Shown: one piece after another, positions 15,231 through 24,364 of the stretch
How positions within the stretch are numbered: position 1 is the stretch's first letter
How the letters are laid out: every line of letters starts with the position of its first letter
IMG/VR virus record: IMGVR_UViG_3300045999_002064
Span: 1-33,280 of that record
DNA from: a virus
Reading direction: 5' to 3' (one strand)
DNA length: 33,280 bases
Program-made: the position numbers and the translations under genes
Notes under the pieces: generated by a model
Told to the model about the DNA's origin: nothing
Seen by the model: the letters and a program-made list of their open reading frames with translations, nothing else
Database searches by the model: none

Positions 15231-16484
15231 GTGGCAACACGACTACCGTACTACACCGGCGAAGACGACATTTATTCGCAGTTGATGCGGCAATTCCAGA
15301 CGGAACTGCCGTATTACAGCGCACCCGTCGCTGGCGTTACTGGCGGCTACAACCCGATGCTGTATTCAATGCCGCCCGGCCTTGGCTACAACGCTGGCCT
15401 TCTTGGTGATACCGGCCTGTTCGCTGGCGCCGCAGACAGCGCAAGCGATGGCGGACTTATCGGGTCATCGCCAACTAGCGGCGGCTTCGGCGGCTTTGGT
15501 GGGTTTGGCAGTAGCGGTGTTTCCGCTAATGGCAGCGTAAGCACAGGGTTCGGTGGTTTGTCCTTGTCCCCTGAAGGCGTTGTCTCGCCCAATAGCCTTA
15601 GCGTTCCGAACTCAATTGCTCTGGGACTAGCCGGTTTGGTAACAGGCCTTCCTCTTGGCTTGATTGGCATGATTGGAAATCAATCGGCAGCCCAGGCCGC
15701 ACAAGCGCTTTCTCAGTCCTTGTCCGACACGATGGGCGTAAATGCTCCTGACGGCATCACCGCCACGGCCGGACCTAGTGGCACAGGCGGCGCCGCTGCA
15801 TCCGCTGCCTCCGCTGCCGCGGCTGCGGCCTCTGCTGCTGGCCTATCTGATGCCGCCATAGGCGCTGCCAGCCAGGCGGCGGCCAATGCTGCCATTAGCG
15901 GAGCTAGCCCGTCGGAAGCCGCCGCGATTGGCGCCTCGGCTGCTGCTGCGGCCACGACGGGCGAAAGCGGCATTGCAGGGTTGGCCACCGGGTTCAGCGA
16001 TGGCGGAACGGCTGGCGGCGATGCTTCTGGCATTGCTGGCCTTTCCGAGGGCTTTAGCGATGGCGGTTCTATCGGCGGGAACTCAGATGCAGGACCATCA
16101 GGCGGTGATGGCGGTGGTGGCGGTGGCGGCGGCGGGAAAATCATCTGCACCAAGCTGCACGAGCTGGGCAAGATGCCCACCGAGATCTACGAAGCGGACC
16201 AAGCCTTCGGCGCGATGCTGGTCAGCGAAAGTCCCGAGACATATCAGGGATACGCCTGCTGGGCGCAGCACGTCGTGCGCTGGATGGGCCGCGACGACTT
16301 GTTTGGCAAATTCGTTGTCTTCGCGGCGTACCATATTGCGACGCCTTGGTCCAAGGCGATGGCGCAAGAGATGGGCGTGAAGGTTGAAAGCGGATGGTTC
16401 GGTCGCTTCTTGATGAAGAACGGCCTTAAGGTTTGCCGAGCCATTGGTAAGATGAATCAGGACAGGAGCGTTCAAAATGTCTAG
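15231..16484 (+). CDS. Gly/Ala-rich virion protein with conserved C-terminal domain
   Basis: A 417-residue protein, probably packaged in the virion. The first 300 residues are low complexity: Gly/Phe/Ser runs (GGFGGFGGFGSSG), then an Ala-rich helical region, then Gly/Asp repeats ending in nine Gly. The last 110 residues form a compact domain beginning KIICTKLHELGKMPTEIYEA and containing GYACWAQHVVRWM, which I recall as a conserved C-terminal block in phage structural proteins; its CTK.HELG.MP.EIYE core is distinctive. It starts with GTG 1 base after the previous stop. Function unknown. The next gene overlaps it by 8 bases. Confidence 0.7.
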   Translation: MATRLPYYTGEDDIYSQLMRQFQTELPYYSAPVAGVTGGYNPMLYSMPPGLGYNAGLLGDTGLFAGAADSASDGGLIGSSPTSGGFGGFGGFGSSGVSANGSVSTGFGGLSLSPEGVVSPNSLSVPNSIALGLAGLVTGLPLGLIGMIGNQSAAQAAQALSQSLSDTMGVNAPDGITATAGPSGTGGAAASAASAAAAAASAAGLSDAAIGAASQAAANAAISGASPSEAAAIGASAAAAATTGESGIAGLATGFSDGGTAGGDASGIAGLSEGFSDGGSIGGNSDAGPSGGDGGGGGGGGGKIICTKLHELGKMPTEIYEADQAFGAMLVSESPETYQGYACWAQHVVRWMGRDDLFGKFVVFAAYHIATPWSKAMAQEMGVKVESGWFGRFLMKNGLKVCRAIGKMNQDRSVQNV

Positions 16485-17226
16485 AAGCAGCGGCGGCACT
16501 CAAACCACCAAAACCGAGATCGACCCGGAAGTTAAAGCCGCGTATCTGCAGAACCTGCAGCAAGCGCGCAACGTCGCGGCAGCACTGCCGGCGCGCGAGT
16601 TCGCTGGATTTAATCCGCTGTATCAGGCTGGCGAGGCGCAGCTCACGAACCTCGGCCTCACGCCCTTCACGGGCGAAGAGATCACCGCGTTCCAAAATCC
16701 TTACGAGCAGCAAGTTGTACAGAATACTTTACGAGATATTGAGGACCAGCGACGCATGGGGCAAATGGCCGAAGCGCAGCGCGCCACGGCCGCTCGTGCC
16801 TTTGGCGGCTCCCGTCAGGGCGTGCAGCAGTCGCTGACCAATGCGGCCGCTTTGCGCCAGGCGGCCACGACTGCCGCGAACCTGCGCCAGCAAGGCTTCG
16901 GCCAAGCGGCGCAGCTTGCGCAGCAGGCGCGCAGCATTGGCCGCCAGGGCGCGATGGACGTTATGGGTCTGGGCGGTGCCCGCCAGGCGTTTACGCAGCA
17001 GCAACTGGATGCATTGCGCGGCCTGGGCCTCGAGCGCCTTGGCATCTCTCAGGCTGGTCTGAGCCTGAACCTGCCGAATCTGGGGATGACGCAGTCGGTG
17101 CCGCTGTATCAGAACCGTGCCGCGGGCGCACTGGGCGGCGCTTTGGGTGGCGCGCAACTGGGACAGATGGCCGGTTTCGGCGCTGGCCCTGGCGCTGCTC
17201 TTGGCGCGTTGGCTGGTCTGCTGTAA
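16477..17226 (+). CDS. Internal virion/ejection protein (small)
   Basis: A 249-residue Ala/Gln-rich protein. NPYEQQVVQNTLRDIEDQRR near residue 75 and ARAFGGSRQGVQQSLTN near residue 110 belong to a family of phage internal virion proteins found ahead of two larger ejection proteins. Most of the chain is predicted helical with heptad-like Ala/Leu spacing, and the C-terminus is a Gly/Ala hydrophobic segment (GALGGALGGAQLGQM) that could enter a membrane. An AGGAG ribosome site precedes the ATG. Gene order suggests a part of the DNA ejection machine like P22 gp7, gp20 and gp16. Confidence 0.72.
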   Translation: MSRSSGGTQTTKTEIDPEVKAAYLQNLQQARNVAAALPAREFAGFNPLYQAGEAQLTNLGLTPFTGEEITAFQNPYEQQVVQNTLRDIEDQRRMGQMAEAQRATAARAFGGSRQGVQQSLTNAAALRQAATTAANLRQQGFGQAAQLAQQARSIGRQGAMDVMGLGGARQAFTQQQLDALRGLGLERLGISQAGLSLNLPNLGMTQSVPLYQNRAAGALGGALGGAQLGQMAGFGAGPGAALGALAGLL

Positions 17227-17235
17227 GGGGGAAAC

Positions 17236-18873
17236 ATGGCAACGTCTTTCGATATTGGCGGACTTCTTGGCAGCGCTTTCGGCGGCGGCTTGTCTGGCCT
17301 CGAGGATCTGCTAACGCCGGAGCAACTCGCTGCGATACAGCGGCAGTCGGGCCTCTCGGCCGCTGCAGCACTGCTCCAGGCCGCGGGGCCGTCCACGACG
17401 CGCACGAGCCTTGGGCAAGCACTTGGCTCGGCCTTTACGGCTGGACAGGCTGGGATGCAAAAGGGCACCGAGTCTGCGCTGACGCAGATGCTGACGCGCC
17501 AGAAGCTAGACGAGGCAAAGCGTGCTCGGGATCTGCAGGCCAACATCGCCAAGATCCTTACGGGCGGTGCCGCGCCTGCGGGTGGCGAGGTGACGGCAGA
17601 AGAGGCGCTTGCCGTGCCTGGCATGGCCGCTGGCCCGACCACCGAGCGCGCCGCCCTGATTGGGCAACCGCGCGCTGCGGCCGCGGGGCCGCAGATGAGC
17701 GCGGCAGAACAGCAGGCAAACGTCTATCGGCGCTTGGCTGGCGTATATGCCGCCAACAATAGACCCCAGGACGCAAAGATTTATAACGAAATGGCCGAGA
17801 GCATGGCTCCGAGCCGCCCCGAAATTGTTGGCGCCCCCATCAGGACAAAAACTGGATACGTTCAGCAAACGAAGACCGGGCAATTCATTCCGCTGCCGAA
17901 AGATTACGAGCCTGTTTCTAAGCCCACTGGAGCGCCGGAGGTGCGAACTGATTCGGCTACTGGTCGCCAGGTTCTGGTGCAAGGATATGAAGACGGCACC
18001 TTCCAAACCGTCCCGGGATTTGGGCCTAAGCGTGAATTTAAAGAGATCAACCTTGGCGGTAGTGTCCAGTTGATGGACGTGAATGCAATCCCCGCGACTG
18101 GAATGAATCTTCCCAAGAGCCTCGCGCCGACAGTTGTTGGCGGCGAAACGGGCGGCTTTTACGTTCTTGGCGGTGGGCGAGGCGGCGTTCCGAGGCCTCT
18201 TGCTGCGCCCGGTGTCGCGGCTCCTGCTGCAGCCGTGCCTTCCCCCGCTGCGCCTGCTAGAGCACCGGCTGCTGTGGCTGCGCCTGCGGCAGCTCCTGCC
18301 GCTGCGCCTGCGGGGCCGACGACGGCCACGACGGGCTTGCAGCCGGTTATCCCTGGCACGGGCAAGGCGTTCCAGAACGAAGAGGCATTGCGCGGTGAAT
18401 TTACAAAGGCAATGGATCCTTTCGTAAAACTTGCACAAGCATTCACTAAAGTCGAGGCTGCCGCTAGCAACCCGTCTGCAGCCGGAGATATTTCTCTCGT
18501 TTATGGATACATGAAAATCCTTGACCCTGGCTCTACTGTTATGCAGGGCGAACAGGCCACCGCAACAAACGCTGGCGGCATACCTGAACGCGTTCGAGCA
18601 ATGTACAACAAGGCTTTGACCGGCGAAGGTCTTGACTCGAAAGTTCGCTCTGACTTCTTGCAACAAGCTAGAAATCTTGTTGGCTCGCAAAGAGATTTGG
18701 CGAACGATTACATTGAACGCTACAAAGAAATCGCGAAGGGCTATCAGTTGGCTCCTGACAAAATCGTCTTTGACCCGTTCAAGCGCGTTAAAAAGCCAGA
18801 AGAAATTATTGGTGGCGCAACTCCAGGGTCTGGCTTTTTCCAGCAGTTCGGCTTAATCCCCCGGCCGCAGTAA
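17236..18873 (+). CDS. Internal virion/ejection protein (medium)
   Basis: A 545-residue protein. The N-terminal 130 residues are Gly/Ala/Gln-rich helices (LTPEQLAAIQRQSGLSAAAA). The middle includes an Ala-Pro linker at residues about 320-370 (SPAAPARAPAAVAAPAAAP). The conserved C-terminal domain carries LVYGYMKILDPGSTVMQGEQ and IPERVRAMYNKALTGEGLD, a block known from phage structural and DNA-transfer proteins. No transglycosylase Glu motif is evident. A strong GGGGGAAAC ribosome site precedes the ATG. GC falls in the C-terminal domain relative to the N-terminal half. Confidence 0.75.
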   Translation: MATSFDIGGLLGSAFGGGLSGLEDLLTPEQLAAIQRQSGLSAAAALLQAAGPSTTRTSLGQALGSAFTAGQAGMQKGTESALTQMLTRQKLDEAKRARDLQANIAKILTGGAAPAGGEVTAEEALAVPGMAAGPTTERAALIGQPRAAAAGPQMSAAEQQANVYRRLAGVYAANNRPQDAKIYNEMAESMAPSRPEIVGAPIRTKTGYVQQTKTGQFIPLPKDYEPVSKPTGAPEVRTDSATGRQVLVQGYEDGTFQTVPGFGPKREFKEINLGGSVQLMDVNAIPATGMNLPKSLAPTVVGGETGGFYVLGGGRGGVPRPLAAPGVAAPAAAVPSPAAPARAPAAVAAPAAAPAAAPAGPTTATTGLQPVIPGTGKAFQNEEALRGEFTKAMDPFVKLAQAFTKVEAAASNPSAAGDISLVYGYMKILDPGSTVMQGEQATATNAGGIPERVRAMYNKALTGEGLDSKVRSDFLQQARNLVGSQRDLANDYIERYKEIAKGYQLAPDKIVFDPFKRVKKPEEIIGGATPGSGFFQQFGLIPRPQ

Positions 18874-18885
18874 AGGTTCACGCAC

Positions 18886-20910
18886 ATGACGAACATCGAA
18901 CGAATCCAAGAAAACATTCGCCGGCTGCAGGCTCAAGGTCAATCGGGTGAGGTTCTTACTGAGTACCTGAAGAGCGAGGGGTATACGCCAACGCGTTACG
19001 AGCAAGCAGTACAGCGCGTCTCTAAGCTGGCTGGACCTCCTGTTAAGGCTGGCTTTGGCCGTTCTGTTTTGCAAGGTCTGTCGTTCAACTTCGCGGATGA
19101 GGCTGAAGCTGCAATGCGCGCCGGTGCTGTGTCTGGCCCGCGATACGAGCAGGAACTTGCGCGAGTCCGTGAAGGCATCAAGCAATACGAAGAAGCATAT
19201 CCTGGCCGCGCTTTTGTCGGTGAGGCGCTTGGTGGGTTGGCCCCGACTGTTGCCGGGCTTGTCGCTGCTCCTTTCACTGGTGGCACGTCTGCTGTTGCCA
19301 CTGGCGCGCGAGTCGGGCAGCAAGCCGCCAAGATCCCAGGCCTGCTGTCTCAAGTTAAGCGCGGCACCGTTGCAGGAGGGACGACTGGCGCCATTTCTGG
19401 CGCTGGTGGCGCAGAAGGTGGAGCAGGTGATCGACTGATGGGCGCTGCGGTTGGCGGTGCTACTGGTGGAGTTCTTGGCGCCGCTACGCCTGTCGCAACG
19501 ACTGTTGTTAAGGCTGGCGCAGAAAAGGTCGGCACAGGCGTTCGTAGGGCCGGCGAAGCTGTTGGAGTTGTTGCGCCACGAGATGCGGCGACTGATGCAA
19601 CCCGGAAGGCGCAGGAAATCCTAGCTCGCAAGATTGCCCAGGAAGGCATGACGCCTGAGCAACTCGCCGCCCGACAGGCTGAAACTGTTCGCGCCCTTGG
19701 TGCTCGAGATGAGACGCTGGCAGACATTGGCGGCGAAGGTATGCGCCGTCTGGCTCGTGGCGCGATGGCGATCCCGCAGTCCGCTGAGACCGAGGCCCGC
19801 CAGATGCTGGCCGAGCGCGCTGTCTCTGCAGGTCCGCGGATCATCAAGGACATTACGGAACTGACGGCCGTCGGCGCCCGCGATCTGGATGAGGTGGCTA
19901 CTGACATCATCACCCGCCGTTCTAATTTGGCATCTCCTTTTTATGAGCAGGCGCGAGCTGCGGGACAGGTCGAATCGTTCGCAATTGATAACCTACTGAA
20001 GAAGTCAAAAGACATCCAGCAAGCAATTGCTAATGCGCGTCGCCTTCCTCAGTACGCTGACCTGCCAGACAACGACATGAATATGCTTGATAAGGCATAT
20101 AAGTACGTCGGGGACTTGGCAGAAACTGCGAAGCGTAACGGCGAAGGCGAGAGGTTCCGTGACCTTGACAACCTGCGCACGCAGCTTCGTTCAGCGATCA
20201 CTGACAAGGTTCCTGTTTATGGTAAGGCGCTAGATACTTTCTCTGGCGAATCTTCTTTGCTTGACGCGCTGACCTCTGGACGCGAAAAGTTTCTGCGCAA
20301 GTCTCCTGCAGAAATTCGCCGCGAGATTAGCGGCTTTAAGGACGAAGGGCAAAAGCAGATGTATCGCCTTGGCGCGATCCAGACGCTGCGCGATGAGATC
20401 TATGGGATGCGCGAAACCGCTGATGTGGCGAGCAAATTCCTTAACGACCGCAACATGAAAGATCGCTTCGGCCTGATCTTTAACTCGACGGGCGAATACG
20501 AGAATTTCATTAAGAACCTGCAGCGCGAGCAATCTATGGCGCGCACTCGCGGGATGATCGAAGGCGGTTCTCCTACCACCAGGATCGCTCAAGAGGTCGC
20601 CGAGATTCAAGGTCCTGCCCCTTCGGAAATTATCTCGTCCGGCGCTCAAATGGTTCGCGGCGACATTCTCGGCGGTGGCGCCAGCTTGCTGCGCCAACTG
20701 GTGCCGCGGATGCAGGGCATGGATGAGAACGTCGCCGAACAGCTTACCCGTAGCGTGCTGGACCCGAGTTTCGCGCGCCAACAAGAAACGCTCATTGGCC
20801 TGACGCCCGTGCTCGATGAGCTGCGGCGCAGGGCCATGCAGCAGCAAGTGCGCGCTACTGGATACTCCGCGACCGCGGGCACCGCAGTGCCGGGTCTGCT
20901 CGGAGATTAA
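18886..20910 (+). CDS. Internal virion/ejection protein (large)
   Basis: A 674-residue protein. GRSVLQGLSFNFADEAEAAM near residue 60 is a conserved motif of large phage ejection proteins. Residues about 105-225 contain several Gly/Ala hydrophobic stretches (GEALGGLAPTVAGLVAAPF and GGATGGVLGAATPVATTVV), likely to insert into the inner membrane or line an ejection channel. The rest is long and helical with charged segments. No enzymatic motif was seen. It is the third and largest member of the 16477-20910 series, which would be released into the cell ahead of the DNA. Confidence 0.78.
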   Translation: MTNIERIQENIRRLQAQGQSGEVLTEYLKSEGYTPTRYEQAVQRVSKLAGPPVKAGFGRSVLQGLSFNFADEAEAAMRAGAVSGPRYEQELARVREGIKQYEEAYPGRAFVGEALGGLAPTVAGLVAAPFTGGTSAVATGARVGQQAAKIPGLLSQVKRGTVAGGTTGAISGAGGAEGGAGDRLMGAAVGGATGGVLGAATPVATTVVKAGAEKVGTGVRRAGEAVGVVAPRDAATDATRKAQEILARKIAQEGMTPEQLAARQAETVRALGARDETLADIGGEGMRRLARGAMAIPQSAETEARQMLAERAVSAGPRIIKDITELTAVGARDLDEVATDIITRRSNLASPFYEQARAAGQVESFAIDNLLKKSKDIQQAIANARRLPQYADLPDNDMNMLDKAYKYVGDLAETAKRNGEGERFRDLDNLRTQLRSAITDKVPVYGKALDTFSGESSLLDALTSGREKFLRKSPAEIRREISGFKDEGQKQMYRLGAIQTLRDEIYGMRETADVASKFLNDRNMKDRFGLIFNSTGEYENFIKNLQREQSMARTRGMIEGGSPTTRIAQEVAEIQGPAPSEIISSGAQMVRGDILGGGASLLRQLVPRMQGMDENVAEQLTRSVLDPSFARQQETLIGLTPVLDELRRRAMQQQVRATGYSATAGTAVPGLLGD

Positions 20911-20922
20911 TCCGAGGTCTTC

Positions 20923-21300
20923 ATGCCAAACAAACCGAACGACGAGCAGGCAAAGCAATTCGACGGTTTCGTACGGCACTGGCAGCAGGTGCTGAACCTG
21001 CAGGATTGGCGCATGGAGCGAGGCTCACGCCCTGCTCGTGGCGCGATGGCCTGCGTCGAGTGTGACAGCCCTGCTCGCCTGGCGATTTATCGCCTGGGCG
21101 ACTTCGGCAGCGAGAAGATCACGCCGACCTCGCTGTCTCACACGGCGCTGCACGAGACGCTGCACGTCTTTCTTTTCGAGCTGGTGGCTGTGGCGCAGGA
21201 CCCAAAGGCTACGCCTGAGCAGTTGGAGAGCGCAGAGCATCGCGTTATTAATGTGCTTGAGCGAGTTTTAGGGAGCGTAGATGGCCACGGTTCTGACTGA
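20923..21300 (+). CDS. HExxH putative metallopeptidase (SprT-like)
   Basis: A 125-residue protein. SHTALHETLHVFLFEL has the zinc-protease core HExxH at residues 77-81 (H77, E78, H81). A downstream helix, LESAEHRVINVLERVL, supplies E105 or H106 as a candidate third ligand. The size and the AEHxVIxxLER helix match a phage family resembling truncated SprT peptidases. CVECDSPARLAIYRLGDF forms the strand before the helix. Placement after the ejection proteins is notable: it might be a virion-borne or late protease. Its last 20 bases overlap the next gene. Confidence 0.72.
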   Translation: MPNKPNDEQAKQFDGFVRHWQQVLNLQDWRMERGSRPARGAMACVECDSPARLAIYRLGDFGSEKITPTSLSHTALHETLHVFLFELVAVAQDPKATPEQLESAEHRVINVLERVLGSVDGHGSD

Positions 21301-22243
21301 CGACGAGTTTCTCGAGCTGTGGAACCTCCACAAAAGCGCCTCGAAGATCGCAAAAATTACCGGCATCAACGAGCGCAAAGTACATTCGCGCCGCCGCACG
21401 CTTGAGCAGAAATACAACCTAGTGCTGGTCGCTGGCGATAAGCGCACGAATGCGTTCGGGAAAGAGGCAGAGAACCACGCAGCGCGCTATCACCTTGGTA
21501 TCGAAAATGGTACGGTGATCGTCTTCTCGGATGCGCACTTCTGGCCCGGCATCCGCAGCACCGCCTTTAAGGGTTTGCTGTGGGCCATTAAGCAGCTCAA
21601 GCCGAAAGTGGTGATTAACAACGGCGACGCCTTTGACGGCGCAGCGATCAGCCGCCACCCGCGTATCGGATGGGACAGCAAACCCAGCGTGGTGCAGGAG
21701 CTGCGAGCCTGCGAGATGTACCTGGGCGAGATCGAAGACGAGGCCAAGGGCGCCAAGCTGGTGTGGACGCTAGGCAACCACGATGCCCGCTTCGAGAACC
21801 GCCTTGCCAACACGGTGCCCGAGTTCATGGCGGTGGGAGGGTTTACCCTTAAGGATCATTTCCCGGCGTGGATCCCGTGCTGGTCTTGCTGGCCTACTGA
21901 GAGCGTGGTGGTCAAGCACCGAATGAGAGGCGGAGTTCACGCCGCGCATAACAACGCCGTAAACGCTGGCAAGACGGTGGTCACGGGCCACCTGCACTCG
22001 CTCAAAGTTACGCCGTTCTCTGACTACAACGGCGAGCGCTACGGCGTGGATACGGGCACACTGGCCGAGACCAACGGCCCGCAGTTTGTGGATTACCTCG
22101 AGGACAATCCGACGAACTGGCGTTCCGGATTTGCCGTGCTCACATTCCATAATGGCCGACTCTTGTGGCCGGAGTTGGTCCACGCTATAGCACCAGGTGC
22201 TATACAGTTTCGCGGCCAGGTGATCGACGTGAGCAAGCTGTGA
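21281..22243 (+). CDS. Calcineurin-like metallophosphoesterase with N-terminal HTH
   Basis: A 320-residue protein. Residues 1-45 look like a helix-turn-helix (SASKIAKITGINERKVHSRR). The phosphoesterase motifs follow in order: SDAH at 83-86 (D84, H86), GDAFD at 115-119, GNHD at 165-168, and GHLH at 236-239, with H213 and H220 between. All six metal-site groups are intact, so it should be active on phosphoester bonds in nucleic acid or nucleotides. Related genes occur late in phage structural clusters. The HTH suggests DNA targeting. It overlaps the upstream gene by 20 bases and the next by 4. Confidence 0.87.
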   Translation: MATVLTDDEFLELWNLHKSASKIAKITGINERKVHSRRRTLEQKYNLVLVAGDKRTNAFGKEAENHAARYHLGIENGTVIVFSDAHFWPGIRSTAFKGLLWAIKQLKPKVVINNGDAFDGAAISRHPRIGWDSKPSVVQELRACEMYLGEIEDEAKGAKLVWTLGNHDARFENRLANTVPEFMAVGGFTLKDHFPAWIPCWSCWPTESVVVKHRMRGGVHAAHNNAVNAGKTVVTGHLHSLKVTPFSDYNGERYGVDTGTLAETNGPQFVDYLEDNPTNWRSGFAVLTFHNGRLLWPELVHAIAPGAIQFRGQVIDVSKL

Positions 22244-22404
22244 GCATCGCCTTCTGGTTCGTGTTGGTGCCCACGCTGTGCTACGCCGGCGCGATGGCGG
22301 TCTACCTATTCCGCGGCGACGCGGCAATGGCGATCGTGTACTCGGGCTATGCCTGGGCTAACGTCGGGCTGATCTGGCTGGAGTTGAGTAAGCGCAGCGT
22401 TTAG
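22240..22404 (+). CDS. Small two-helix membrane protein (54 aa)
   Basis: A 54-residue protein starting at GTG, overlapping the phosphoesterase TGA. Two hydrophobic segments, IAFWFVLVPTLCYAGAMAVY and AIVYSGYAWANVGLIWLEL, are separated by a short polar turn (LFRGDAAM). No known family function is clear to me. The GTG is chosen over a longer upstream in-frame start because that would lie deep inside the phosphoesterase and add unrelated sequence. Confidence 0.65.
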   Translation: MSIAFWFVLVPTLCYAGAMAVYLFRGDAAMAIVYSGYAWANVGLIWLELSKRSV

Positions 22405-22416
22405 GTAAAATTAATC

Positions 22417-23193
22417 ATGGCCGACTACATCATCCCCACACCGCGTAATCCCATTCTGGGATTGCTTGCCGATGCCATGATGGGCGGCCTCGCCTACATG
22501 GAAGACCCGCGGCGCACGCAGCAGATGCGCGGCGTCGGCGGCCTGTTGTCGGAGACTCGCATTCCCCAACTCGTGGAGCGTCTGGCTTATGGCGAGCCAC
22601 TGACCACTGGCAAAGGGATGACCACCCGCCTGCATCCAGATGCCGAGGCGGCTCTTCTAACTCTGGGGCCGGAGGCTGTGCCGATTGGCCGTGGAGCAGC
22701 GGCGGCAGTGAGGGCCACGAAGGGACTGCCGGTGGGCGCGAGTATTAAACCAGTTGCAAAACAGGTTGACGATTTTTCTTATCGTGGCTCACACACTGCG
22801 CCAGGCCCCGATTTTGGCGCGCCTTTGCATGATCTAACTGGCGGCGGACAAATGTATCCGGCGGATGTGTATTCAGGCAACGCTGTCCGTTACTACGGAA
22901 CCGGGTATCCGACTGCTGACAGAGAAGCGTTTTCTCTTGCAAACAGGGTGAGGAATAAACCTGATGCAATTGTGACGGCGTACAGGGCCGTGCCAAACGA
23001 CCCAAAAATCACATCAATAAATCAAGGCGATTGGGTCACCTTGAGCAAGGATTACGCAAAACAACACGGCGAATCTGTGCTCGGGAAAGATTACAAAATC
23101 ATCGCAGAAAAAGTAAAAGCTAAAGAGCTGTACACAAACGCAGACTCGATCCATGAATTTGGGTATTGGCCTGCAGGCCTCCTCGGCCGCTAA
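22417..23193 (+). CDS. Two-part phage protein with probable C-terminal ADP-ribosyltransferase domain
   Basis: A 258-residue protein. Residues 1-105 form a constant-looking N-terminal module (PRNPILGLLADAMMGGLAYM and VERLAYGEPLTTGKGMTTRL) that I recall at the front of phage proteins with varied C-termini. After a linker, residues 120-252 read as an ADP-ribosyltransferase fold of the R-S-E type: R190 in VTAYRAVP, S210 in DWVTLSKDYAKQHG, and E247 in SIHEFGYWP. SYRGSHTAPGPDFGAPLHDL is the conserved lead-in. The C-terminal half is visibly richer in A+T than the N-terminal half, suggesting a swapped domain. It is the last late gene; it may be carried in the virion and modify a host protein. The catalytic assignment is inference. 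Confidence 0.68.
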   Translation: MADYIIPTPRNPILGLLADAMMGGLAYMEDPRRTQQMRGVGGLLSETRIPQLVERLAYGEPLTTGKGMTTRLHPDAEAALLTLGPEAVPIGRGAAAAVRATKGLPVGASIKPVAKQVDDFSYRGSHTAPGPDFGAPLHDLTGGGQMYPADVYSGNAVRYYGTGYPTADREAFSLANRVRNKPDAIVTAYRAVPNDPKITSINQGDWVTLSKDYAKQHGESVLGKDYKIIAEKVKAKELYTNADSIHEFGYWPAGLLGR

Positions 23194-23900
23194 CGCGCCC
23201 TGCGCTTAATCAACTCCATCACCGCGGCATCGCCAGCCTGGGCCTCGGTCGGCGCGAACAGCGCCCTGCTCCTCTCAGCCGCGCCCTTGCGGGGTTCGCA
23301 AAGGTAGTACACCGCCAGCGACTTGCGGTGCTGCCCCGGCGGGCAGGTGATCGGCTCGGGCAGGCCGTGCCAGGCGTTCGTCGTGTCAAAAAGTACCGCC
23401 CGATTGAACATCGGCGCGATAGATTTGACCAGCTCGCCGGGCTTGCCGCCATCATCGCGCCACAGCCCCAGCGATCCGCCCCAGGACTTATGCCACCCGG
23501 CATTGAGATACACGATCAGATTGAGCCTGCGCTCGAGGCCCAGCTTGGGGTGGATGCTGTAGTCCAGATGCGTGTTCAAGCGGCCGCCCGCGCCGTGGAT
23601 GTGCAGACCGCCGCCATGCAAGCCGTGATCCGGGTACAGCTTGCAGTTCGTGAGGCGCTCGAAAATGCGATAGCACTCGCGGGAATTGATGTCGGTGAAG
23701 AACTTGTACAGCGCCGGCGAGAAGTGGTGCCAATTGTTGAGCGTCTTTTTCACCTCGATGGCGTTGTCGTAGGTATGCCAGACGGGGCTGTCGTAATCGG
23801 GGAAGTCTGCGGCCAGCTCGTGCGCCAGCTCGTCGTCGAAGAAGTTGTCCAGCACCAGGTGCGGGAACGGATCAAGGCTGCCCCAGTGGTTAGCGGTCAT
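23190..23900 (-). CDS. 2OG-Fe(II) oxygenase (prolyl hydroxylase-like)
   Basis: A 236-residue protein of the 2-oxoglutarate/iron dioxygenase superfamily. LNTHLDYSIHPKLGLERRLN supplies the HxD pair (H111, D113), NAWHGLPEP the distal His (H178), and PGQHRKSLAVYYL the Arg that binds 2-oxoglutarate (R192). NLIVYLNAGW and GGSLGLWRDD are typical core strands. The best relatives are prolyl hydroxylase-like enzymes; the substrate could be a virion protein, a host protein or a sugar. It is the last gene of the leftward operon, coupled to the RuvC-like gene by an ATGA overlap. Its stop overlaps the stop of the converging late operon. Confidence 0.87.
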   Translation of the reverse strand: MTANHWGSLDPFPHLVLDNFFDDELAHELAADFPDYDSPVWHTYDNAIEVKKTLNNWHHFSPALYKFFTDINSRECYRIFERLTNCKLYPDHGLHGGGLHIHGAGGRLNTHLDYSIHPKLGLERRLNLIVYLNAGWHKSWGGSLGLWRDDGGKPGELVKSIAPMFNRAVLFDTTNAWHGLPEPITCPPGQHRKSLAVYYLCEPRKGAAERSRALFAPTEAQAGDAAVMELIKRRAR

Positions 23901-24364
23901 TGCTGCTTCGCACCATAAAGAGCGATCAGGGCGGCATCGGAGCGGCCGTCGTCCTTCACGCGAGAGAACAGTGCGGCCTCGTCTGGGAACAGTTGGGCCG
24001 CGCGGTAGCGGCTGCCGTCCTTACCCTGGGGCACGTCCAGCGCCTTCTGCCAGGTGCGCGGCGGGATCGTCGTGGTGGGCACCTCGCAGGCGGCGAGCAC
24101 CCCGAGAACGACGCCAAGGGATTGCCCCATCGAAAACATACTGGTGACGCCCTGACCCGGCATCGCGTTCAGGCGCTCAAGGTAGGCGGCATCCGCCTTA
24201 GCGTCACGGATGATTGTGTGCAGCGTATGCGCATTGACCATGCGCTTGGTCTTGTTGTTCCGTTCCAGCGACAGGGTGGGCATATCGTGGACCTGCAGCA
24301 GCTTGCCGTCTTCAATCAGCGCGATGGCGCCGTTCAGCCCCACGTCGATGCCAAGAACCCTCAC
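23897..24364 (-). CDS. RuvC-like Holliday junction resolvase
   Basis: A 155-residue RNase H-fold nuclease. The four acidic sites of the RuvC class can be placed: D7 in VLGIDVGLNGAIAL, E63 in YLERLNAMPGQGV, and D139/D143 in DDGRSDAALIALYG. TSMFSMGQSLGVVLGVL is the conserved helix after the second acid. The size is normal. In phages such enzymes cut branched replication intermediates before packaging. It sits between the HTH regulator and the oxygenase, with 4-base overlaps on both sides. Confidence 0.9.
   Translation of the reverse strand: MRVLGIDVGLNGAIALIEDGKLLQVHDMPTLSLERNNKTKRMVNAHTLHTIIRDAKADAAYLERLNAMPGQGVTSMFSMGQSLGVVLGVLAACEVPTTTIPPRTWQKALDVPQGKDGSRYRAAQLFPDEAALFSRVKDDGRSDAALIALYGAKQQ

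What the first reader, a model, noticed from the sequence alone, without database searches (positions are those of the whole stretch)
22417..23193. Possible virion-delivered ADP-ribosyltransferase with exchangeable C-terminus
Seen: an N-terminal module, then a lower-GC C-terminal domain with R190, S210 and E247 placed as in the R-S-E class of ADP-ribosyltransferases, and the characteristic YRGSHTAPGPDFGAPLHDL lead-in. It is the last gene after the ejection-protein block. Known: T4 Alt is injected with DNA and modifies host RNA polymerase. Inference: the constant module mediates packaging while the C-terminus varies between phages, like polymorphic toxins.
Basis: partly seen in the sequence, partly recalled or inferred. 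Interest (0 to 1): 0.72.

Follow-up and report, generated by a model that had tools for sequence, protein, structure and literature searches.

The report
Phage effector gene with swappable ends
A small bacterial virus carries, at the end of its DNA-injection gene block, a protein made of a fixed head and a predicted host-modifying enzyme; in close relatives the enzyme part alone has been cleanly replaced by other enzymes, which suggests a plug-in system for proteins delivered into the infected cell.

Summary
The ORF is real (258 aa). Its C-half is a predicted ADP-ribosyltransferase (ART). AlphaFold gives pLDDT 88, and essentially all reported PDB matches are ART-fold proteins, though each is weak (Z up to 5). 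R190 and E247 are invariant in relatives. S210 is not; the conserved hydroxyl residue is T208. No Pfam, NCBIfam or PADLOC model matches; PHROG_2579 does, under the misleading label 'ParB C-terminal domain'.

The guess of an exchangeable C-terminus is borne out. At the same genomic slot, close relatives keep the N-half and neighbouring genes but carry an unrelated C-half (ART-PolyVal-like, GNAT, others). Window and L033 DNA diverge after 22736 and match again from 23176, the last codons of the gene. About 90 non-redundant proteins share the N-module with many payloads.

Two constant elements frame the payload: a linker peptide (R/K)ATKGLPVG(A/M)SIK (60/93 proteins versus 0 of >1,100 other genes) and a C-terminal tail [GSN]LLx (59/88 versus 14/976, 12 of those 14 being homologues of two neighbouring predicted ejection proteins).

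Virion delivery stays circumstantial: position after P22-like ejection genes, shared tail, one MuF capsid-protein fusion. The theme (polyvalent proteins, MuF toxins) is published. This header, linker, tail and ART branch look undescribed in the papers searched.

The parts
22417..23193 (+). Complete effector gene, 258 aa
   Evidence: close full-length relatives in viral contigs L001-L003 (65-81%) and in MW202462 (46%)
22417..22719 (+). Constant N-terminal module, aa 1-101, about five helices, moderate confidence; shared by ~90 non-redundant proteins with different C-halves
22708..22746 (+). Junction peptide RATKGLPVGASIK (aa 98-110): near-invariant peptide with variable codons, start of a predicted disordered linker (aa 101-124 pLDDT<50)
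22737..23175 (+). Exchangeable cassette (aa ~107-253): DNA homology to L033 (and nearly the same to L154, L163, L156) stops and resumes at these borders; GC 0.485
22780..23181 (+). Predicted ADP-ribosyltransferase domain (aa ~122-255), triad R190 / T208 / E247
   Evidence: PHROG_2579 C-part
23176..23190 (+). Constant C-terminal tail GLLGR (pattern [GSN]LLx1-2 in 59 of 88 complete N-module proteins)
18886..20910 (+). e18, 674 aa, predicted ejection protein (P22 gp16-like position and size), ends PGLLGD, the same tail
   Evidence: PHROG_5880, unknown function; role inferred from position only
16477..17226 (+). e16, 249 aa, Gly-zipper C-terminus, predicted ejection protein (P22 gp7-like position and size)
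   Evidence: role inferred from position only
17236..18873 (+). e17, 545 aa, predicted ejection protein (P22 gp20-like position and size)
   Evidence: PHROG_13634; homologues named virion structural protein
21281..22243 (+). Metallophosphoesterase, upstream flank of the slot
23190..23900 (-). 2OG-Fe(II) oxygenase, convergent downstream flank; kept irrespective of the payload
23897..24364 (-). RuvC-like resolvase, downstream flank

Best explanation
The gene is an exchangeable-effector slot of a P22-like short-tailed phage. The protein has a fixed helical head (aa 1-101), a fixed linker motif (KGLPVG), a swappable enzyme, here an ART with an R190/T208/E247 site, and a fixed short tail (GLLx). 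Shown: the modular architecture and the clean cassette exchange at a syntenic locus. Inferred: the protein is made with the late genes, loaded into the head with the ejection proteins through head and/or tail, enters the cell with the DNA, and there transfers ADP-ribose from NAD+ to a host target early in infection. The target is unknown. The lack of an E/Q two residues before E247 (I245) argues against simple arginine specificity. Exchange happens by recombination inside the conserved linker at the 5' border and at the tail/neighbour gene at the 3' border, from a lower-GC pool of payloads.
For: AF2 of the C-domain: pLDDT 88.3, pTM 0.81. In the VIA list essentially every row is an ART-superfamily or ART-like chain: Tpt1/KptA Z up to 5.0, CNFy domain 4.3, Vis 3.7, cholera A1 3.3, TreX, ART2.2, ParT, CDTa. 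The aligned ends with 2a5g_B (79-147 to 1-117) put R190 on its R7 and E247 on its E112, if ungapped at the ends. R190 and E247 invariant, T208 S/T in 28 of 28. N-module in 126 ORFs, of which 31 carry this ART; others carry ART-PolyVal 29, PBECR5 9, LPD23 3, PcfJ 2, GNAT, DUF6782. Same slot, same flanks, other payload: L033 (2OG 95%, RuvC 93%), L154-L157, L159-L166, L150, L168, with break points 22736/23176. Linker motif 60/93 vs 0 of >1,100 other genes, codons variable. Tail 59/88 vs 14/976, 12 of the 14 in e18/e16 homologues, spread over 13 of 18 payload clusters. Relative L056 fuses the ART to Phage_Mu_F, E=1.6e-9. Late position next to ejection or packaging genes in most loci.
Against: Structural matches are individually weak (Foldseek E 0.04, Z up to 5), and no sequence profile links it to a characterised ART. 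The tail is shared with e18 only in one e18 lineage; divergent e18 homologues end NLAGQ, AAGAQ or FFAP. The ejection role of e16-e18 rests on order and size, not on homology to a studied protein. No proteomics exists here. The loci are related, so counts are not independent events.
Confidence: 0.6

Rival explanations
1. A late-expressed cytoplasmic ART or toxin, not packaged: it modifies the host or excludes competing phages during the same infection, and its neighbourhood with late genes only reflects shared transcription.
For: A gap with two other genes lies between e18 and this gene in the window, and a weak promoter-like match lies just upstream (22384-22411, no better than chance). T4 ModA/ModB are ARTs that act later in the infection cycle (PMC9503650).
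Against: N-module and tail are kept over unrelated payloads, which suggests a shared delivery or assembly role; tail shared with e18/e16; family member fused to MuF; direct abutment to the e18-position gene in many relatives.
Confidence: 0.25
2. Linker and tail are only recombination borders: stretches of DNA homology left by repeated exchange, with no protein-level role.
For: Break points fall exactly at both elements; the window's gene overlaps the 3' end of the convergent 2OG gene by 4 bases.
Against: Codons for TKGLPVG and LL vary widely while the residues stay. The linker also occurs with unrelated N-modules (L013, L015, L019, L027, L029, L035), and both elements occur at other genomic positions, next to terminase/portal.
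Confidence: 0.2
3. The C-domain has an ART-like fold but works on small molecules or RNA (NADase, phosphotransferase) rather than on protein.
For: The highest VIA rows are tRNA 2'-phosphotransferases; I245 replaces the E/Q of the ExE/QxE motif (alignment).
Against: The site is R/T/E rather than the H-H-h pattern described for KptA-type ARTs (PMC9503650).
Confidence: 0.25
4. A ParB-like DNA-binding protein, as the PHROG label says.
For: PHROG_2579 'ParB C-terminal domain', E=6e-35.
Against: The match covers only profile positions 331-462 of 472; the predicted fold matches ARTs; ParB-like stretches appear as separate inserts in relatives such as L026 (sequence reading, no Pfam hit).
Confidence: 0.03

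Closest known systems
Phage polyvalent proteins (Iyer et al. 2017, PMC5512222)
   Same: Late-gene setting, predicted injection, and the same payload domains in sister proteins (ART-PolyVal, PBECR5, LPD23, PcfJ, metallopeptidase)
   Different: Polyvalent proteins mostly combine many domains. Here one fixed header, linker and tail hold one or few swappable domains. The ART of the window is of R-T-E type, not the H-Y-D type that paper describes for polyvalent ARTs.
MuF polymorphic toxins (Jamet et al. 2017, PMC5576092)
   Same: Head-associated constant N-part, variable C-terminal enzymes including ARTs; one relative (L056) of this ART is itself a MuF fusion
   Different: The window protein has no MuF domain, the header is unrelated, and the cassette ends at the stop codon with no linked immunity ORF.
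T4 Alt
   Same: Predicted phage ART with R/(S,T)/E residues, proposed to enter with the DNA
   Different: No sequence-family match to an Alt PHROG; no ExE motif; other phage type; packaging and target untested
PHROG_2579 proteins (Mycobacterium phages Pumpkin, Myrna and others)
   Same: The same C-domain family
   Different: Other N-parts; labelled ParB, which does not describe the shared domain
P22 ejection proteins gp7/gp20/gp16 (reviews PMC8954989, PMC8402733)
   Same: Gene order, sizes and adjacency of e16-e18 (P22 order and sizes from own knowledge)
   Different: No detectable sequence relation to solved structures found here; an effector gene of this kind is not among the P22 ejection proteins (own knowledge)

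Membership tests
ADP-ribosyltransferase superfamily, R-S-E clade | ART fold (split beta-sheet core) | tested here: met
   AF2 pLDDT 88.3; VIA rows Z>=2 are ART-superfamily or ART-like chains, best Z 5.0, so agreement is consistent but each match is weak
ADP-ribosyltransferase superfamily, R-S-E clade | Arg in strand 1 | tested here: met
   R190 invariant in 28 sequences, in strand 185-193
ADP-ribosyltransferase superfamily, R-S-E clade | Ser/Thr hydroxyl of the central motif | tested here: met
ADP-ribosyltransferase superfamily, R-S-E clade | Catalytic Glu | tested here: met
   E247 invariant
ADP-ribosyltransferase superfamily, R-S-E clade | ExE/QxE motif (feature of arginine-type members, not of the whole clade) | tested here: not met
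   I245-x-E247
ADP-ribosyltransferase superfamily, R-S-E clade | NAD-dependent activity | not testable with these tools
   needs biochemistry
T4 Alt family | Sequence-family membership | tested here: not met
   PHROG scan at E<=1 gives only phrog_2579 and a weak unknown; no Pfam hit
T4 Alt family | Presence in the head and injection | not testable with these tools
   no virion data
MuF polymorphic toxins | MuF domain | tested here: not met
   no Pfam hit in P0001; present in relative L056
Polymorphic toxins in general | Constant N-part with variable C-terminal toxin | tested here: met
Polymorphic toxins in general | Linked immunity gene | tested here: not met
   3' homology resumes at the stop codon and the convergent 2OG/RuvC genes follow whatever the payload
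Phage polyvalent proteins | Payload domains of the polyvalent set on the same scaffold | tested here: met
   ART-PolyVal, PBECR5, LPD23, PcfJ in N-module proteins
Phage polyvalent proteins | Late-gene, virion-protein neighbourhood | tested here: met
Phage polyvalent proteins | Several enzymatic domains in one polypeptide | tested here: not met
   the window protein has one; relatives such as L018 and L031 have two or more by sequence reading

The most novel reading that the evidence does not exclude
Short-tailed phages of this group own a general virion-loading platform: a fixed header, a processing or binding motif KGLPVG in a disordered linker, and a C-terminal GLLx tag shared with ejection proteins. 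Together these let any of a dozen unrelated enzymes be packaged and injected, with clean cassette replacement between close relatives.
Probability: 0.35. Interest if true: 0.82.

Novelty: new variant of a known kind. Interest (0 to 1): 0.62.

Why it matters
Phage-injected effectors are suspected to be common but are hard to find. A fixed header, linker and tail would give three sequence handles to list such effectors in uncultured phages, including payloads with no known domain. The clean syntenic swaps make it testable whether the framing elements are sufficient for packaging, an open question for ejection proteins. The ART branch itself lacks a Pfam model and carries a misleading label in PHROGs.

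Tried and rejected
Sequence searches of P0001 against Pfam, NCBIfam, PADLOC and PDB sequences gave nothing useful; the profile search of A1 against PDB gave two chance-level hits. The N-module alignment A2 was too diverse for a collection scan and was replaced by a narrower one (A3). Predicted ejection proteins e17 and e18 have no solved homologue and few phage homologues. Sharing of the tail by all e18 proteins was considered and rejected: only one lineage has it. The ParB label was rejected (fold and domain borders). Promoter and terminator scans near the gene were at or near chance level. T4 Alt itself did not appear in the fold lists, which proves nothing.

Full report
Observation. The window is an IMG/VR virus record of 33,280 bases. 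Its late genes follow a P22-like order: portal (PHROG_1216, E=4e-153), scaffold, major head protein, then a virion structural protein whose phage homologues are named 'phage stabilization protein', then e15, e16, e17, e18, a 125-aa ORF, a metallophosphoesterase, and this gene; convergent 2OG-oxygenase and RuvC genes follow on the other strand. That e16-e18 (249, 545, 674 aa) are ejection proteins is inferred from order and size; homology searches did not settle it.

Is the C-half an ART? A model of aa 106-258 built with 28 relatives has pLDDT 88.3 and pTM 0.81. Foldseek ranks an ART first but weakly (Vis, E=0.04). Re-alignment by VIA gives rows with Z from 2.1 to 5.0 that are all ART-superfamily or ART-like chains: Tpt1/KptA, the CNFy domain, Vis, cholera A1, TreX, IcmQ, ART2.2, ParT, CDTa (that the CNFy domain and IcmQ are ART-like is own knowledge). 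Each match is weak; their unanimity is the argument. In the alignment with 2a5g_B the end points (79-147 on 1-117) put R190 at position 7 and E247 at position 112, the catalytic residues of that protein by general knowledge, provided there is no gap near the ends. I245 at the -2 position means that no ExE/QxE motif is present. By sequence the domain belongs to PHROG_2579 (E=6e-35, profile positions 331-462 of 472), found in 172 phage records, most of them Mycobacterium phages, and named 'ParB C-terminal domain', a label that does not fit the shared part. No Pfam, NCBIfam or PADLOC model matches. The polyvalent-protein paper describes its ARTs as H-Y-D (PMC5512222), and the survey of viral ARTs names Alt/VIP2 and Mod as the frequent R-S-E viral families (PMC9503650), so this looks like a further R-S-E-type branch.

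Is the C-terminus exchangeable? Yes. Searches with the N-terminal module found 126 ORFs in the fetched contigs, 31 of them with this ART. Pfam finds in 91 non-redundant members ART-PolyVal (29), PBECR5 RNase (9), LPD23 (3), PcfJ (2), GNAT, DUF3990 and DUF6782 metallopeptidase. The strongest case is syntenic. L001 and L002 share this ART and are collinear with the window throughout (83.7% and 80.6% DNA identity). L033 has 79% identity in the N-module and 95%/93% in the 2OG and RuvC genes, but an unrelated C-half of ART-PolyVal type (below the curated Pfam cut-off). Its DNA matches the window up to 22736 and again from 23176, that is, from the last five codons of the gene. L154, L156 and L163 break at nearly the same places, and L163 carries a GNAT domain. 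The replaced stretch is low in GC in all of them (0.47-0.51 against 0.65-0.69 in the N-half). Since homology resumes at the stop codon, no immunity gene travels with the cassette, unlike classical polymorphic toxins.

Two framing elements. First, a linker (R/K)ATKGLPVG(A/M)SIK sits at the junction. It occurs in 60 of 93 N-module proteins and in none of more than 1,100 other genes of the same contigs. Among 66 distinct DNA versions the P and second G are invariant and T, K, G, L and V nearly so, while their codons vary freely; the core letters were part of the search pattern, so the informative conservation is in the codons and the outer positions. It also follows unrelated N-modules (L013, L015, L019, L027, L029, L035). 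In the full-length model it opens the disordered stretch 101-124, which is how a short binding or cleavage motif would look. Second, the C-terminal tail [GSN]LLx1-2 occurs in 59 of 88 complete N-module proteins, across 13 of 18 payload clusters, against 14 of 976 other genes. Of those 14, eight are e18 homologues, four are e16 homologues and two are ORFs next to N-module genes (the two counts used slightly different forms of the pattern, and overlapping contigs are counted separately in the second). The window's e18 ends PGLLGD and the effector ends AGLLGR. The limit: divergent e18 homologues end differently, and the loci are related, so the counts are not independent.

Delivery. Evidence is circumstantial: last place in, or next to, the ejection block, with direct abutment on the e18-position gene in L003, L006, L008, L010, L159, L162 and L168; position beside terminase/portal in the other large group; the tail shared with predicted ejection proteins; and a relative of the ART fused to the MuF head protein (L056). 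Known precedent is T4 Alt and MuF toxins (PMC5512222, PMC5576092). I put about 0.65 on packaging and injection of the protein, and 0.85 on the ART fold.

Verdict. The title of the finding is largely right; the serine and the certainty of packaging are not. The kind of system is published. The header, the linker, the tail and the clean slot exchange are, as far as the searched papers show, undescribed.

Noticed in passing
L155:2-2407: Two N-module genes stand in tandem in one slot (the first one cut at its start by the contig end), so the slot can hold more than one effector.
   Followed up: partly
L153:3741-9845: A 2035-aa ORF contains two N-modules (aa 419-523 and 1507-1616).
   Followed up: no
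22241-22405: A short unlisted ORF with GTG start, about 54 aa and strongly hydrophobic, fills the gap between the metallophosphoesterase and the effector gene.
   Followed up: no
23190-23900 (-): Pfam calls this 2OG-Fe(II) oxygenase (1.7e-16) while PHROG_274 calls the same protein DNA endonuclease V; the PHROG name is probably wrong.
   Followed up: no
16477-17226: e16 and its homologues end in a glycine-rich hydrophobic stretch (AGLL, GGLLGLFG and similar), perhaps a membrane-inserting end.
   Followed up: partly
L046-L049, L051 (for example L047:2469-8639): The same ART family sits inside a 2057-aa protein of another phage group, which has no Pfam match at all.
   Followed up: no
L063-L074: Relatives of the ART in bacterial and archaeal genome contigs (Methylococcales, Sinomonas, Bacilli, a Methanobrevibacter bin); prophage or host origin not checked.
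   Followed up: no
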